Origin: Mesorhizobium sp.
Lineage (GTDB): Bacteria > Pseudomonadota > Alphaproteobacteria > Rhizobiales > Rhizobiaceae
Direction: 5' to 3'
Assembly: GCA_004020545.1 (NCBI GenBank)
Contig: SAQE01000046.1
Location: forward strand, 1 to 51,324
Length of the DNA: 51,324 nt
The notes beneath the pieces were generated by a model. It made no database searches. It was given only the letters and a program-made list of their open reading frames with translations, and was not told the DNA's origin. Of the stretch, positions 36,267 to 41,019 are shown one piece after another (position 1 is the stretch's first letter; each line of letters opens with the position of its first letter). A program made the position numbers and the translations under genes.

Positions 36267-39209
36267 TCAATGCGCCTCGTCCCAGTTGTCGGCGGCGCGC
36301 GCGTCGACATGCAGCGGCACCGACATCGAGACGGCCGGCATCGGCGCGTTCTCCATCACGCGGCGCACCACGGGGATCGTCGCTTCGACCTCCGCATCCA
36401 CCGTCTCGAAGATCAGCTCGTCATGCACTTGCAGCAGCATGCGGGCCGAGAGCTTCGCCTTCTCCAAGGCTTCTTCCATGTGCACCATGGCGCGGCGGAT
36501 GATGTCGGCGGCGGTGCCCTGGAGCCTGGCGTTGATCGAGGCGCGCTCGTTGAAGGCGCGGACCGACGGGTTGGAGGCCCTTATCTCCGGGTAGTGGATG
36601 CGGCGGCCGAAGATGGTCTCGACGAAGCCGTATTCGCGGGCATAGGCCTTGGTTTCCTCGATATAGTCGCGGATGCCCGGGAAGCGCTCGAAATAGCGCT
36701 TGATATACGCGCTTGCCTCCTCGCGCGGGATCGACAACTGATTGGCGAGGCCGAAGGCCGAGATGCCGTAGATGATGCCGAAATTGATCGCCTTGGCGCG
36801 CCGGCGCACCTCCGAGGGCATGCCTTCGACCGGCACGTTGAACATTTCCGACGCGGTGATGGCGTGGATGTCGGCGCCGTCGGCGAAGGCCTGCTTGAGC
36901 TGCGGGATCTCGGCAACATGGGCGAGCACCCGCAGCTCGATCTGGCTGTAGTCGGCCGAGACCAGCTTGTGGCCCTTCTCGGCGATGAAGGCGGTCCTGA
37001 TCTTGCGGCCTTCGGCGGTGCGCACAGGGATGTTCTGCAGATTGGGGTCGGAGGACGACAGGCGGCCTGTCGTCGTCGCAGCCAGCGCGTATGAGGTGTG
37101 GACACGATTGGTGCCGGGATTGATGAAGCCGGGCAGCGCGTCGGTGTAGGTCGATTTCAGCTTGGTGAGCTGGCGCCAGTCGACGATCTTGCGCGGCAGT
37201 TCGTGGCCTTCGGCCGCAAGGTCCTCCAGAAGCTGCGCCGAGGTCGACCATTGGCCGGTCTTGGTCTTGGAGCCGCCCGGCAGACCCATTTTGCCGAACA
37301 ATATGTCGCCGAGCTGTTTCGGCGAGCCGATGTTGATGCGCTCGCCGACGATCCCGTAAATTTCTTCCTCGACGCGGGCAGCCCCTTGCGCCAGCTCGCC
37401 CGACAGCCTTGACAGGATCTGGCGGTCGACCGAGATGCCGCGCTGCTCCATGCGGGCGAGCACGGGCACCAGCGGCCGCTCCAGCCGCTCATAGACGGAA
37501 ACGAGGCCCTTGGCGGCGAGCCGGGGCTTCAGCAATTGCCAGAGCCGCAGCGCCAGATCGGCCTGCTCACCGGCATAGGCGGTCGCCCGCCCGATATCGA
37601 TCTGGTCGAAGCCGACGGCGCTCTTGCCCGAGCCGGCAAGCTCCTTCTTCGAAGTAGGTGCATAGCCGAGCCACTTCTCAGACAGCGAGGCGAGATCGTG
37701 GCCGCCGGATGTGCCGGCATCGAGCACATAGGAGATCAGCATCGTGTCGTCGAACGGGCCGACCTCGATGCCGTGCCGGCTCATGACGACGATGTCGTAT
37801 TTCATGTCCTGCACGATCTTGAGAACGGATCTGTCCTCCAGCAGGGGCTTCAGCAGCGCGAGCGCTTCGCGGACAGGGATCTGGTCCGCCAGCAGGCCGC
37901 CGCCAAGCAGGTCGCCATTGCCGCTCGCGTGGGCGAGCGGCACGTAGACGGCGCGGCCTGGCGCAACTGCCATGGAGAGGCCGATCAGCTCGGCCTGCAT
38001 CGGGTCGGACGAGGTGGTCTCGGCGTCGAAGGCCAGAATGCCGGCTTCCTTCACCTCGGCGATCCAGGATTTGAGCGTGGCCGTATCGCGAATGGCCGTA
38101 TAGGCCGAAGGGTCGATCTTGCGCGCCGTCGCCTGCTCCAGTCGCAGCGCCGAGAGCAGGGAAGGGGTGTCGCCCTGAGGCGGGGCGTCTTCCGCTCTGA
38201 CGGGCGGCTGAGCAGGCTTTGCGGCTGCGACCGGCGGCGCGCCGGCGCCGACATCGGGGCCGTGCGCCGTATCGGTACGCTCGATAATGACGGCGGAAGC
38301 CTGGACATCGCCGATCTCGGTTGCGGTCGCCTCCGCGACGCGGCGGGTCAGGGTGGTGAATTCCATCGTCTTCAGGAAGCCGATCAGCTTCGGCCCGTCC
38401 GGCGCATGCAGCACCAGATCGTCCAGCCCCTCCTTCAGCGGCACGTCGTTTTTCAGCGTCACCAGCTCACGCGAGATGCGCGCCTTGTCGGCATTGGCGA
38501 TGATGGTTTCGCGCCGCTTCTCCTGCTTGATCTCGGAGGCGCGCGCGAGCAACCCGTCCAGGTCGCCGAACTGCTCCAGGAGTTGTGCCGCGGTCTTCGG
38601 TCCGATGCCGGGCACGCCCGGCACGTTGTCGACGGAGTCGCCGGTCAGCGCCTGCAGGTCGATCATCTTTTCCGGCGGCACGCCCCATTTCTCGATCACC
38701 TCGGGGACGCCGATCTGGCGGTCCTTCATTGGGTCGTACATGCCGACCGTAGGGCCGACGAGCTGCATCAGGTCCTTGTCGGAGGAAATGATGGTGGTGT
38801 CGGCGCCGACCTCGCAGGCCAGCCGGCAATAGGTGGCGATGATGTCGTCGGCCTCAAAACCTTCCATCTCGATGCAGGGCAGGTTGAACGCCACGGTCGC
38901 CTGGCGGATCAGGCCGAATTGCGGGATGAGGTCTTCCGGCGGCGCCGATCGGTTGGCCTTGTATTCGGGATAGAGATCGCTGCGGAAGGTTTTCGAGGAA
39001 TAGTCGAAGATGACGGCGAAATGCGTCGGCACGATACCCACATCGGTGTTGCGGGCGTCCTGCATCAGTTTCCACACCATGTTGCAGAAGCCGAGCACGG
39101 CGCTGGTCGGCAGGCCGTCGGATTTGCGGTTGAGCGGCGGCAGCGCGTGGTAAGCGCGGAAAATGTAGCCGGAGCCGTCGACAAGGAAGAGGTGATCGCC
39201 TTTTTTCAT
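36267..39209 (-). CDS. polA: DNA polymerase I
   Basis: Repair and Okazaki-fragment polymerase, 980 residues. The 5'-3' exonuclease domain spans about 1-290, with YDPMKD-type acidic sites and a helix-hairpin-helix at 195-215. After a Pro/Ala-rich linker (303-360) comes the 3'-5' exonuclease with D395 and E397 intact in FDAETTS, so proofreading is likely active. Polymerase motif A (DYSQIELR) is at about 753, motif B (RRRAKAINFGIIYG) at about 800 with the Phe that excludes dideoxynucleotides, and motif C (QVHDE) at about 930. The ATG at 39209 starts MKKGDHLFLVDGSG; the upstream extension is rejected. Confidence 0.97.
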   Translation of the reverse strand: MKKGDHLFLVDGSGYIFRAYHALPPLNRKSDGLPTSAVLGFCNMVWKLMQDARNTDVGIVPTHFAVIFDYSSKTFRSDLYPEYKANRSAPPEDLIPQFGLIRQATVAFNLPCIEMEGFEADDIIATYCRLACEVGADTTIISSDKDLMQLVGPTVGMYDPMKDRQIGVPEVIEKWGVPPEKMIDLQALTGDSVDNVPGVPGIGPKTAAQLLEQFGDLDGLLARASEIKQEKRRETIIANADKARISRELVTLKNDVPLKEGLDDLVLHAPDGPKLIGFLKTMEFTTLTRRVAEATATEIGDVQASAVIIERTDTAHGPDVGAGAPPVAAAKPAQPPVRAEDAPPQGDTPSLLSALRLEQATARKIDPSAYTAIRDTATLKSWIAEVKEAGILAFDAETTSSDPMQAELIGLSMAVAPGRAVYVPLAHASGNGDLLGGGLLADQIPVREALALLKPLLEDRSVLKIVQDMKYDIVVMSRHGIEVGPFDDTMLISYVLDAGTSGGHDLASLSEKWLGYAPTSKKELAGSGKSAVGFDQIDIGRATAYAGEQADLALRLWQLLKPRLAAKGLVSVYERLERPLVPVLARMEQRGISVDRQILSRLSGELAQGAARVEEEIYGIVGERINIGSPKQLGDILFGKMGLPGGSKTKTGQWSTSAQLLEDLAAEGHELPRKIVDWRQLTKLKSTYTDALPGFINPGTNRVHTSYALAATTTGRLSSSDPNLQNIPVRTAEGRKIRTAFIAEKGHKLVSADYSQIELRVLAHVAEIPQLKQAFADGADIHAITASEMFNVPVEGMPSEVRRRAKAINFGIIYGISAFGLANQLSIPREEASAYIKRYFERFPGIRDYIEETKAYAREYGFVETIFGRRIHYPEIRASNPSVRAFNERASINARLQGTAADIIRRAMVHMEEALEKAKLSARMLLQVHDELIFETVDAEVEATIPVVRRVMENAPMPAVSMSVPLHVDARAADNWDEAH

Positions 39210-39327: not shown

Positions 39328-39343
39328 GTTACAAAAGTGTAAC
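39328..39343. promoter_or_regulatory. Dyad in the polA / sRNA divergent gap
   Basis: GTTACA-AAAG-TGTAAC, a perfect 6-bp inverted repeat with a 4-base spacer. It lies about 120 bases upstream of polA and just upstream of the -35-like CTTGAA of the candidate small RNA. It looks like a regulator site; the protein is unknown. Confidence 0.45.
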
Positions 39344-39387
39344 GTTCGTGCCCTTGAATCGCCATGTTCGCACACCCAAATAGCTGG

Positions 39388-39537
39388 CATCGGCAATTTT
39401 CGCCGAAGTCCGGAGTAAGGCCCGTCCCCCGCCTATCCCGGGCAAACTGCGGCAGCCTATCCCCCCTCTCCGGGCTGCCGCAACGTTTCGAGTAAAGACC
39501 GCCGTGGTTCCCCCTCCACCACGGCGGTTCTTTTTTG
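39388..39537 (+). ncRNA. Candidate small RNA with three C-rich-loop hairpins
   Basis: Three consecutive stems are visible: GCCCG/CGGGC (39420-39443), TGCGGCAGCC/GGCTGCCGCA (39448-39482) and ACCGCCGTGG/CCACGGCGGT (39498-39528). Their loops are all rich in C: TCCCCCGCCTATCC, TATCCCCCCTCTCCG and TTCCCCCTCCA. The third stem is followed by TCTTTTTT, an intrinsic terminator. CTTGAA at 39353 with a weak CCAAAT 17 bases on could be the promoter, so the 5' end is approximate. C-rich loops can pair with Shine-Dalgarno sequences, as in the CcsR/cuckoo (alpha-r14) RNAs, although the exact CCUCCUCCC motif is not present. No open frame fits. The gap from polA to the M20 gene has no protein gene. Confidence 0.65.
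39498..39537 (+). terminator. Intrinsic terminator of the candidate small RNA
   Basis: A perfect 10-bp GC-rich stem with an 11-base C-rich loop followed by TCTTTTTT. It lies upstream of the M20 gene, so it must end a separate upstream transcript. Confidence 0.85.
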
Positions 39538-39633
39538 CCTTTCGACATGCCTCCGATCCTTGGTCCAACGATCACGGCTTTTCGTTTTCGGCCCGGCCCT
39601 TTAGGGTCGGCGCAAAAATCGAAAGGCAAAAGC

Positions 39634-41019
39634 ATGTCCAGAATTTCTCCCGTCCTCGATCGTCTCGACCAGAACCTCGACCAAAGCCTGGAGCGGCTTT
39701 TTGGCCTGCTCGGCATCAGGTCGATCTCGACCGATCCCGCCTATGCAGCCGACTGCCGCAAGGGCGCCGAGTGGCTGGTGGCCGAGCTCAAGCTGATCGG
39801 CTTCGACGCCAGCGTGCGCGACACGCCCGGACATCCGATGGTGGTGGCGCATCACGAGGGGCCGGCCGGCGCGCCGCATGTGCTGTTCTACGGCCATTAC
39901 GACGTGCAGCCGGTCGATCCGATCGAGCTTTGGGAGACCGACCCCTTCGCGCCGTCGATCAAGGAGATCGAGCCCGGCCGCAAGGTGATCACCGGTCGCG
40001 GCTCGGCCGACGACAAGGGTCAGCTGATGACCTTCGTCGAGGCATGCCGCGCCTGGAAGCAGGTGCACGGCAATCTGCCGTGCCGTGTCACCATCCTGTT
40101 CGAGGGCGAAGAGGAGTCCGGCTCGCCGTCGCTCAATCCTTTCCTCGAGGCGAACGCGGCCGAGCTCAAGGCGGATTTCGCTTTGGTCTGCGACACCAGC
40201 ATGTGGAACCGCGAGACGCCGTCGATCTGCGTGTCGCTGCGCGGCATGGTCGGCGAGGAGGTCACCGTCAAGGCAGCCAGCCGCGACCTGCATTCAGGTC
40301 TCTATGGCGGCCCGGCCGCCAATCCGATCCGCATCCTGGCCAAGGTCCTTGCCGACGTTCACGATCAAGATGGCCGTGTCACCATCCCAGGCTTCTATGA
40401 CGGCGTCGAGGAGACGCCTAGCCAAGTGCTGAAGTCGTGGGAGGGGCTTGGCGAGACCGCCGAGACATTCCTCGGTCCGGTCGGCCTCTCCATTCCCGCC
40501 GGCGAAAAAGGCCGTTCGCTGCTCGAACTCACCTGGGCGCGGCCGACTGCCGAATTCAACGGCATCATCGGCGGCTATACCGGAAAAGGCTTCAAGACGG
40601 TGATTGCGGCCGAGGCCTCGGCGAAAGTGTCGTTCCGGCTCGTCCACAAGCAGGATCCGAAGAAGATCCGCGCCGCCTTCCAGGCCTTCGTGCGCGAACG
40701 CATCCCGGCCGACTGCTCGGTCGAATTCCATCCGCATGGCGGCTCGCCGGCGATCCAGCTCTCCTACGACTCGCCTTTCCTGGCCAAGGCCAAGGATGCG
40801 CTCTCCGACGAATGGGAGAAGCAGGCCGTCACCACCGGCGGCGGCGGCTCCATTCCCGTCGTCGGCGACTTCCAGACCTATCTCGGCATGGAATCGCTGC
40901 TGGTCGGCTTCGGCCTCGATGACGACCGCATCCATTCGCCGAACGAGAAATACGAGCTCTCGTCTTTCCACAAGGGACAGCGATCCTGGGCGCGCATCCT
41001 CGATGCGCTCACCCGCTGA
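39634..41019 (+). CDS. M20-family dipeptidase
   Basis: A 461-residue cytoplasmic zinc peptidase of the M20 (CPG/DapE-like dipeptidase) family. FYGHYDVQPVDP has the first metal histidine and catalytic aspartate, RGSADDKGQL the bridging aspartate, and FEGEEESGSPSL the catalytic and metal glutamates. A dimerisation domain lies in the middle (DLHSGLYGGPAANP). The ATG at 39634 (MSRISPVLDRL) is chosen because the longer frame crosses the small-RNA terminator. The peptide substrate is unknown. Confidence 0.93.
   Translation: MSRISPVLDRLDQNLDQSLERLFGLLGIRSISTDPAYAADCRKGAEWLVAELKLIGFDASVRDTPGHPMVVAHHEGPAGAPHVLFYGHYDVQPVDPIELWETDPFAPSIKEIEPGRKVITGRGSADDKGQLMTFVEACRAWKQVHGNLPCRVTILFEGEEESGSPSLNPFLEANAAELKADFALVCDTSMWNRETPSICVSLRGMVGEEVTVKAASRDLHSGLYGGPAANPIRILAKVLADVHDQDGRVTIPGFYDGVEETPSQVLKSWEGLGETAETFLGPVGLSIPAGEKGRSLLELTWARPTAEFNGIIGGYTGKGFKTVIAAEASAKVSFRLVHKQDPKKIRAAFQAFVRERIPADCSVEFHPHGGSPAIQLSYDSPFLAKAKDALSDEWEKQAVTTGGGGSIPVVGDFQTYLGMESLLVGFGLDDDRIHSPNEKYELSSFHKGQRSWARILDALTR

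What the first reader, a model, noticed from the sequence alone, without database searches (positions are those of the whole stretch)
39388..39537. Candidate small RNA with three stacked hairpins, each exposing a C-rich loop
Three perfect stems in a row, all with loops dominated by C (up to six in a run), end in a strong terminator placed upstream of a gene that needs no terminator there. C-rich loops would pair with the G-rich Shine-Dalgarno sequences common in this genome. This is like the CcsR/cuckoo RNAs of alphaproteobacteria, but the loops differ from their CCUCCUCCC motif, so it may be a distinct family next to polA.
Basis: partly seen in the sequence, partly recalled or inferred. Interest (0 to 1): 0.7.

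Follow-up and report, generated by a model that had tools for sequence, protein, structure and literature searches.

The report
Known small RNA ar7 beside polA
The C-loop hairpins are a real small regulatory RNA gene, but it belongs to the already known alphaproteobacterial family ar7 (SmrC7 of Sinorhizobium meliloti), which usually sits next to the DNA polymerase I gene.

Summary
The hairpins are real and the locus is a small RNA gene, but not a new family. Rfam RF02342 (ar7) matches window 39388-39533 over its whole model at 118.9 bits (cut-off 60). It is the same locus as SmrC7/sra03/SmelC023 of S. meliloti, reported in 2007 between polA and SMc02851 with Northern and RACE evidence. In 56 family members 97.5% of cells pair and 24 of 32 pairs show two-sided changes (0 of 500 shuffles), while loops 1 and 2 hardly change (54 and 52 of 56). 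polA lies divergently just upstream in 165 of 181 loci, and a CCCTTGAA promoter box sits at a fixed distance. Loops 2 and 3 favour Shine-Dalgarno windows in this genome and loop 1 does not, but a reversed loop 2 does as well, so this is not specific. The published zapA target is not supported by conservation in 29 genera. Diverged copies lie at polA in genomes of 1.0-1.1 Mb. Targets remain unknown. Interest is low; what is left open is the partner of loop 1 and the family's wider range.

The parts
39388..39536 (+). ar7 small RNA gene (SmrC7/sra03/SmelC023 orthologue), about 149 nt; start inferred from the model start and promoter spacing, end at the last U
   Evidence: Rfam RF02342, 118.9 bits against a cut-off of 60, model 1-145 of 145 at 39388-39533; fold z -6.61; covariation
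39353..39358 (+). -35 box CTTGAA (within CCCTTGAA)
   Evidence: CTTGA at -45..-25 in 63 of 74 representatives against 1.2% of 21677 background 20-mers
39375..39381 (+). -10 box CCCAAAT, 16 bases after CTTGAA; compare RpoH1 motif CTTGAA-N15-16-CCTATAT
   Evidence: conserved CAaaT columns; motif as quoted in PMC4843759
39328..39343 (.). GTTACAAAAGTGTAAC inverted repeat upstream of the promoter, partly conserved
   Evidence: sequence; moderate column conservation around -63..-47; function unknown
39391..39405 (+). 5' mini-hairpin CGGC/GCCG (4 pairs)
   Evidence: helix 1
39409..39442 (+). hairpin 1; loop 39422-39430 CCGUCCCCC, holding the GUCCCCCG block that is invariant in 56 of 56 aligned members
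39448..39482 (+). hairpin 2; 15-nt loop 39458-39472 UAUCCCCCCUCUCCG; 9 of 10 pairs of this helix have two-sided changes
39499..39536 (+). hairpin 3, intrinsic terminator; loop 39509-39517 UCCCCCUCC (holds CCUCC), then U6
36267..39209 (-). polA, DNA polymerase I, divergent neighbour
   Evidence: Pfam PF00476, PF02739, PF01367; divergent upstream in 165 of 181 loci
39634..41019 (+). M20 family peptidase, downstream neighbour
   Evidence: Pfam PF01546, PF07687; same strand downstream in 134 of 181 loci

Best explanation
The feature is the gene of ar7, a trans-encoded small regulatory RNA of about 149 nt, in a Mesorhizobium-type genome (family membership shown; genus inferred from relatives). It is transcribed away from polA from its own CTTGAA-type promoter, perhaps of RpoH/RpoD class (inferred from sequence), and ends at its own terminator (inferred from sequence). 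Covarying stems hold up C-rich loops; the sequences of loops 1 and 2 were kept across the family while the stems changed (shown). The likeliest mechanism is antisense pairing of loops 2 and 3 to G-rich ribosome-binding regions of mRNAs, repressing them without strong dependence on Hfq (inferred). Loop 1 probably has a more specific partner, because it shows no preference for Shine-Dalgarno windows and is the most conserved block (inferred). In S. meliloti the RNA was tested as most abundant in log phase in rich medium, rises about 13-fold in nodules and is cut to a 106-nt form (published). That cut maps to loop 1 in aligned Sinorhizobium-type sequences, leaving hairpins 2 and 3 (computed here).
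For: Whole-model Rfam hit; one copy above cut-off in its own genome; 282 of 394 family genomes above cut-off and 335 of 394 at E <= 0.001. Covariation: 97.5% of 1782 cells paired, 24 of 32 pairs with two-sided change, 0 of 500 shuffles, slid structures 25-54% paired. Loops: GUCCCCCGC in 54 of 56 and CCCCUCUCC in 52 of 56. polA in 165 of 181. Promoter. S. meliloti literature: about 13-fold up in nodules, 5' ends and 106-nt processed form, RpoD RpoH1/2 in a review table, not detected with tagged Hfq. Mean duplex energy of loops 2 and 3 with the -22..-2 window of 265 called genes: -5.59 and -4.96 against -2.4 to -3.8 kcal/mol in the other windows.
Against: No transcript data for this organism. 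The Shine-Dalgarno preference is shared by a reversed loop 2 (-5.89). Only 119 of the 265 genes carry an SD-like tetramer by my rule. Near-complements of loop 2 are no more frequent than the reversed pattern (25 against 32, one of the 25 being the RNA gene itself). The zapA operon shows no conserved complementarity. Non-detection with Hfq may be low affinity, as that paper says. RpoH: del Val 2007 proposed sigma-70 and found no alternative sigma site with reliable values, PMC2245857 found neither a sigma-70 nor a sigma-54 site for sra03, and the simple sigma-70 scan here found none.
Confidence: 0.8

Rival explanations
1. It is a member of the cuckoo/CcsR or ar14 (NfeR1) RNA group, acting through repeated CCUCCUCCC loops.
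For: Similar architecture of hairpins with C-rich loops; sub-threshold cross-match to ar14, 45.6 bits against 58.8; loop 3 holds CCUCC.
Against: Whole ar7 match at 118.9 bits; CCUCCUCCC in 0 of 56 and 0 of 18 members; the genome has separate ar14 copies at 91.0 and 87.9 bits.
Confidence: 0.03
2. It is a 5' leader or attenuator of the downstream M20 peptidase gene, not a free RNA.
For: M20 follows on the same strand in 134 of 181 loci, here 97 bases after the terminator.
Against: In many of those loci M20 starts more than 500 bases away while the polA side stays put; the promoter box has fixed spacing; a free transcript of about 150 nt is published for S. meliloti.
Confidence: 0.03
3. The loops work mainly by binding a protein other than Hfq, so that the RNA is a sponge and not an antisense regulator.
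For: Loops 1 and 2 hardly change although the one target tested across genera was not supported; not detected with tagged Hfq; loop 1 does not favour Shine-Dalgarno windows.
Against: No binding protein is known to me; C-rich loops pair well with G-rich RNA in principle; the rhizobial NfeR1 with such loops silences targets post-transcriptionally (passage of PMC7143759).
Confidence: 0.12

Closest known systems
Rfam RF02342 ar7 = SmrC7/sra03/SmelC023/sm13 of S. meliloti (that ar7 was named after Smr7C is recalled; locus, strand and neighbours agree in the calls)
   Same: Whole model match, polA divergent upstream, covarying stems, conserved loops, terminator, promoter position
   Different: Hairpin 2 stem of the GCGGCAGCC type instead of the GGACAAAGGCC type seen in Sinorhizobium-type loci; -35 followed by TC rather than AA
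ar14 / NfeR1 (RF02344)
   Same: Several hairpins with C-rich loops and variable stems; conserved in rhizobia
   Different: CCUCCUCCC loops; six copies in S. meliloti; here a tandem pair elsewhere in the genome beside two DUF1127 genes
CcsR1 (RF02791) / cuckoo RNAs
   Same: C-rich loops
   Different: CCUCCUCCC motif absent here; no match of this locus to RF02791 up to E 0.5
PmaR of Agrobacterium (PMC6234868; abstract, outline and passages seen)
   Same: C-rich loop engages targets; a four-base loop change abolished regulation
   Different: One long stem with one loop; said to be restricted to Agrobacterium and Rhizobium sp. IRBG74; kinship not tested here

Membership tests
ar7 (RF02342) | Score above the curated cut-off over the whole model | tested here: met
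   118.9 bits, cut-off 60, positions 1-145 of 145
ar7 (RF02342) | Covarying stems with conserved loops 1 and 2 | tested here: met
ar7 (RF02342) | Location next to the DNA polymerase I gene | tested here: met
   polA start 178 bases upstream, divergent
ar7 (RF02342) | Expressed as a free transcript of about 150 nt | not testable with these tools
   Published for S. meliloti, not for this organism
ar14 / NfeR1 (RF02344) | CCUCCUCCC in every loop | tested here: not met
   absent in the window RNA and in all 56 representatives
ar14 / NfeR1 (RF02344) | Score above the curated cut-off | tested here: not met
   45.6 bits, cut-off 58.8
CcsR / cuckoo (RF02791) | CCUCCUCCC loops and model match | tested here: not met
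   no match of L001 to RF02791 up to E 0.5; motif absent
RpoH-class promoter | CTTGAA-N15-16-CCTATAT | tested here: inconclusive
   -35 exact, spacing 16, -10 CCCAAAT agrees at 5 of 7; no expression data

The most novel reading that the evidence does not exclude
ar7 is an old stress-linked RNA of the whole GTDB-sense Rhizobiaceae, reaching even genomes of 1.0-1.1 Mb at the same polA site. Its most conserved element, loop 1 (GUCCCCCG), is not an anti-Shine-Dalgarno but recognises one specific, still unknown partner; loss of that loop in the reduced genomes marks loss of the partner.
Probability: 0.25. Interest if true: 0.4.

Novelty: already known. Interest (0 to 1): 0.13.

Why it matters
As a discovery it matters little: the RNA has been in print since 2007 and is in Rfam. 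It is still a widely conserved rhizobial small RNA for which I saw no confirmed target in the passages that I read. The alignment gives a clear handle (two fixed loops on freely covarying stems), suggests that the Rfam cut-off misses real members (16 of 18 sub-threshold loci lie at polA), weakens the published zapA suggestion, and sits uneasily with a report that Smr7C was not discovered in one Mesorhizobium.

Tried and rejected
New family: rejected by the Rfam match. Second ar7 copy in the genome (35.8 bits): rejected, it is a tandem pair of ar14. This warns that weak hits in the 335 of 394 tally may include ar14. I looked at 18 below-cut-off loci (best hits of 18 of the 30 genomes that I chose for weak scores): 16 lie at polA. 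17 of the 18 match ar7 best at E <= 0.05, where L102 drops out; L089 and L093 also give weak ar14 cross-matches (31.7 and 34.3 bits). Loop 1 GTCCCCCGC is kept in 13 and loop 2 CCCCTCTCC in 10 of these 18.

zapA/DUF4164 operon as a target (proposed in PMC2245857): 30 genomes searched, 29 matched. Mean z over 29 was +0.11 for loop 2, +0.31 for its core, -0.43 for loop 1 and +0.31 for loop 3, so not supported. Against this, 4 of 29 reach z <= -2 with loop 1 (L250, L255, L256, L259) and 1 with loop 2 (L251). In the own genome loops 1, 2 and 3 fall in the best 7%, 10% and 70% of 300 shuffles. Start codons were picked by a simple rule and generic loop sequences were used.

Near-complement of loop 2 (GGRGRGGGGGR) in the own genome: 25 hits against 32 for the pattern read backwards. 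One hit is the RNA gene itself. By eye at least 14 of 25 share one of two repeated contexts. 5 of 25 have a start codon within 25 bases and a frame of 60 codons or more (L224, L226, both strands at L231/L232, L238); these were not followed up.

GANTC methylation sites in the promoter as a cell-cycle link: 35 of 74 upstream stretches against 10.7% of background windows. Of 70 anchored promoters 25 overlap the -35 box, 8 have one further down, 37 none. The background includes coding sequence and relatedness is not corrected, so it stays a note. Genome-wide target prediction with conservation was not done. Literature search listed only unrelated papers.

Full report
Observation. The + strand of window 39388-39536 holds a 4-pair 5' hairpin, an imperfect hairpin 1, two perfect hairpins and a U6 tail. 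It folds far better than dinucleotide shuffles (z -6.61, 0 of 200; z -6.07, 0 of 200, for 39380-39545); the opposite strand is weaker (z -2.90, 1 of 200). The loops are CCGUCCCCC, UAUCCCCCCUCUCCG and UCCCCCUCC.

Identity. A scan of the whole window against Rfam 15 at the curated cut-offs gave one match: RF02342 ar7 at 39388-39533, 118.9 bits against 60, whole model. The own genome has one copy above cut-off; its weaker second hit is a tandem pair of ar14 RNAs. In a sample of 394 genomes of the same family 282 exceed the cut-off and 335 match at E <= 0.001, from 94 of 109 genera. In 297 genomes of the order 12 match, all 12 in the window's family; one unmatched family member (G164) is shown, and 265 unmatched rows are not listed (strict filters). 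The window is therefore most likely from a Mesorhizobium, judged by similarity and genome size.

Same locus as the published RNA. Table 1 of PMC2780559 lists candidate C7 between polA and SMc02851 with flanks pointing apart (passages and section 6). The same RNA is sra03 in PMC2245857 (passages), smrC7/sm13 in PMC2573895 (passages) and SmelC023 in PMC2873474 (passage). PMC3927594 (passages) reports 29 relatives, all but the one of A. tumefaciens C58 beside a DNA polymerase I gene, with conserved loops on stems that exchange base pairs. That the Rfam name ar7 was coined for Smr7C is recalled; agreement of locus, strand and neighbours is what the calls show.

Covariation. Of the 83 above-cut-off loci among L001-L084, 56 rows from 55 genera were aligned by sequence alone; the rest were mostly further members of the same genera, and L082 (71.0 bits, the only one of its genus) was left out. 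By eye L082 keeps loop 1 and not loop 2. RNAalifold finds the same stems, 24 of 32 pairs being changed on both sides in at least one row. On that structure 97.5% of 1782 cells pair against 86.8% in shuffles; 249 cells have two-sided changes against 77.4; 0 of 500 shuffles reach any of the five measures; sliding the partners by 1-3 columns drops pairing to 25-54%. The structure came from this alignment's consensus, which favours it, and relatedness inflates such counts, but the Rfam structure agrees. Loop 1 GUCCCCCGC is in 54 of 56 and loop 2 CCCCUCUCC in 52 of 56; CCUCCUCCC is in 0.

Synteny. polA is divergent within 800 bases upstream in 165 of 181 loci. The 16 misses are L008, L011, L040, L058, L059, L063, L067, L081, L083, L084, L091, L096, L141, L158, L169 and L174; seven of them (L058, L059, L063, L067, L141, L158, L174) hold at most 600 upstream bases. 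An M20 gene follows on the same strand in 134 of 181, often at a distance.

Promoter. CTTGA lies at -45..-25 in 63 of 74 representatives (the 56 and the 18 below cut-off), against 1.2% of 21677 background 20-mers. Anchored on CTTG (70 of 74), the columns read CCCTTGAAt.GCCAc.TTc, a gap, then CAaaT, with the RNA start at a fixed place (the anchor itself makes CTTG invariant). In the window it is CTTGAA-N16-CCCAAAT. PMC4843759 quotes the RpoH1 motif as CTTGAA-N15-16-CCTATAT (passage), and PMC7143759 lists RpoD RpoH1/2 for SmelC023 (table passage). Against RpoH: PMC2780559 proposed sigma-70 and a UlaR-like site and found no reliable alternative sigma site, and PMC2245857 found no sigma-70 or sigma-54 site for sra03. 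RpoH control is plausible, not shown.

Expression and processing in S. meliloti (published). About 13-fold more in nodules than in free-living cells; 5' ends at 201679 and 201681, a cut at 201723, forms of 148-150 and 106 nt. The RNA was not detected with tagged Hfq, which the authors read as absent or weak binding.

How it works. In the window plus one contig of the own genome (265 genes from a simple caller of my own), loops 2 and 3 bind the -22..-2 window better than seven other windows (-5.59 and -4.96 kcal/mol against -2.4 to -3.8), like an anti-Shine-Dalgarno decamer (-5.08) and the ar14 motif (-5.32). Loop 1 does not (-9.21 against -7.8 to -9.2). A reversed loop 2 gives -5.89, so the preference is one of composition. 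This leaves antisense pairing at ribosome-binding sites possible, without a specific target. The zapA suggestion of PMC2245857 is not backed by conservation. I rate the identity at about 0.98 and the antisense mechanism at about 0.65.

Range. Of 10 small-genome family members searched, 6 had a hit at E <= 1 and 2 were above cut-off; at that loose limit 5 of 14 control genomes also ring, so position is the main support for the weak ones. L102 (27.1 bits) and L277 (35.9 bits), from genomes of 1.1 and 1.0 Mb of one genus, and L276 (74.2 bits) and L279 (15.0 bits) of another, have polA within about 90-155 bases upstream; L278 (16.4 bits) has none and is taken as noise. A third genome of the first genus (G403, 1.5 Mb) gave no hit. 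L102 and L277 keep the TTGAAATGCCA box, a GATCCCCTTTCC loop 2 and the C-rich terminator loop, but have lost loop 1; L279 has lost more. Both fold better than shuffles (z -4.90 and -3.26). PMC3927594 found no relative in Liberibacter. PMC5596092 says Smr7C was not discovered in M. huakuii 7653R (passage). The 8 listed genomes of the window's genus all have it above cut-off (39 unmatched rows of that call are not shown); that strain was not examined.

Verdict. Real, structured, conserved and already known. The open point is what loops 1 and 2 recognise.

Noticed in passing
L002 1501-1778 (own genome contig C122), minus strand: Tandem pair of ar14 (NfeR1 family) RNAs at 91.0 and 87.9 bits, beside two small DUF1127 genes (L002 1974-2120 and 1783-1923, minus strand; 62.2 and 55.2 bits). 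DUF1127 next to CCUCCUCCC RNAs recalls the ccaF1-CcsR loci of Rhodobacter (recalled).
   Followed up: partly
window 39328-39343: Inverted repeat GTTACAAAAGTGTAAC between polA and the small RNA promoter, partly conserved in relatives; possibly a binding site shared by the two divergent genes.
   Followed up: partly
window 39356-39360 and promoters of relatives: A GANTC (CcrM-type) site overlaps the -35 box in 25 of 70 anchored promoters and lies further down in 8 of 70; 35 of 74 upstream stretches have one against 10.7% of background windows.
   Followed up: partly
L102 1501-1627; L277; L276; L279: ar7 copies at polA in genomes of 1.0-2.3 Mb, three of the four below the Rfam cut-off, L102, L277 and L279 without loop 1.
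   Followed up: partly
own genome, for example L226, L235, L236, L243, L246 and L233, L237, L239: Two dispersed contexts, aagccgagacGGAGAGGGGGA and tccccacaagGGGGAGGGGGA, seen among the loop 2 complements.
   Followed up: no
L091 (G377): A genome with two ar7-like matches; the better one, L091, has both conserved loops, lacks the terminator hairpin and has no polA in the held flank.
   Followed up: no
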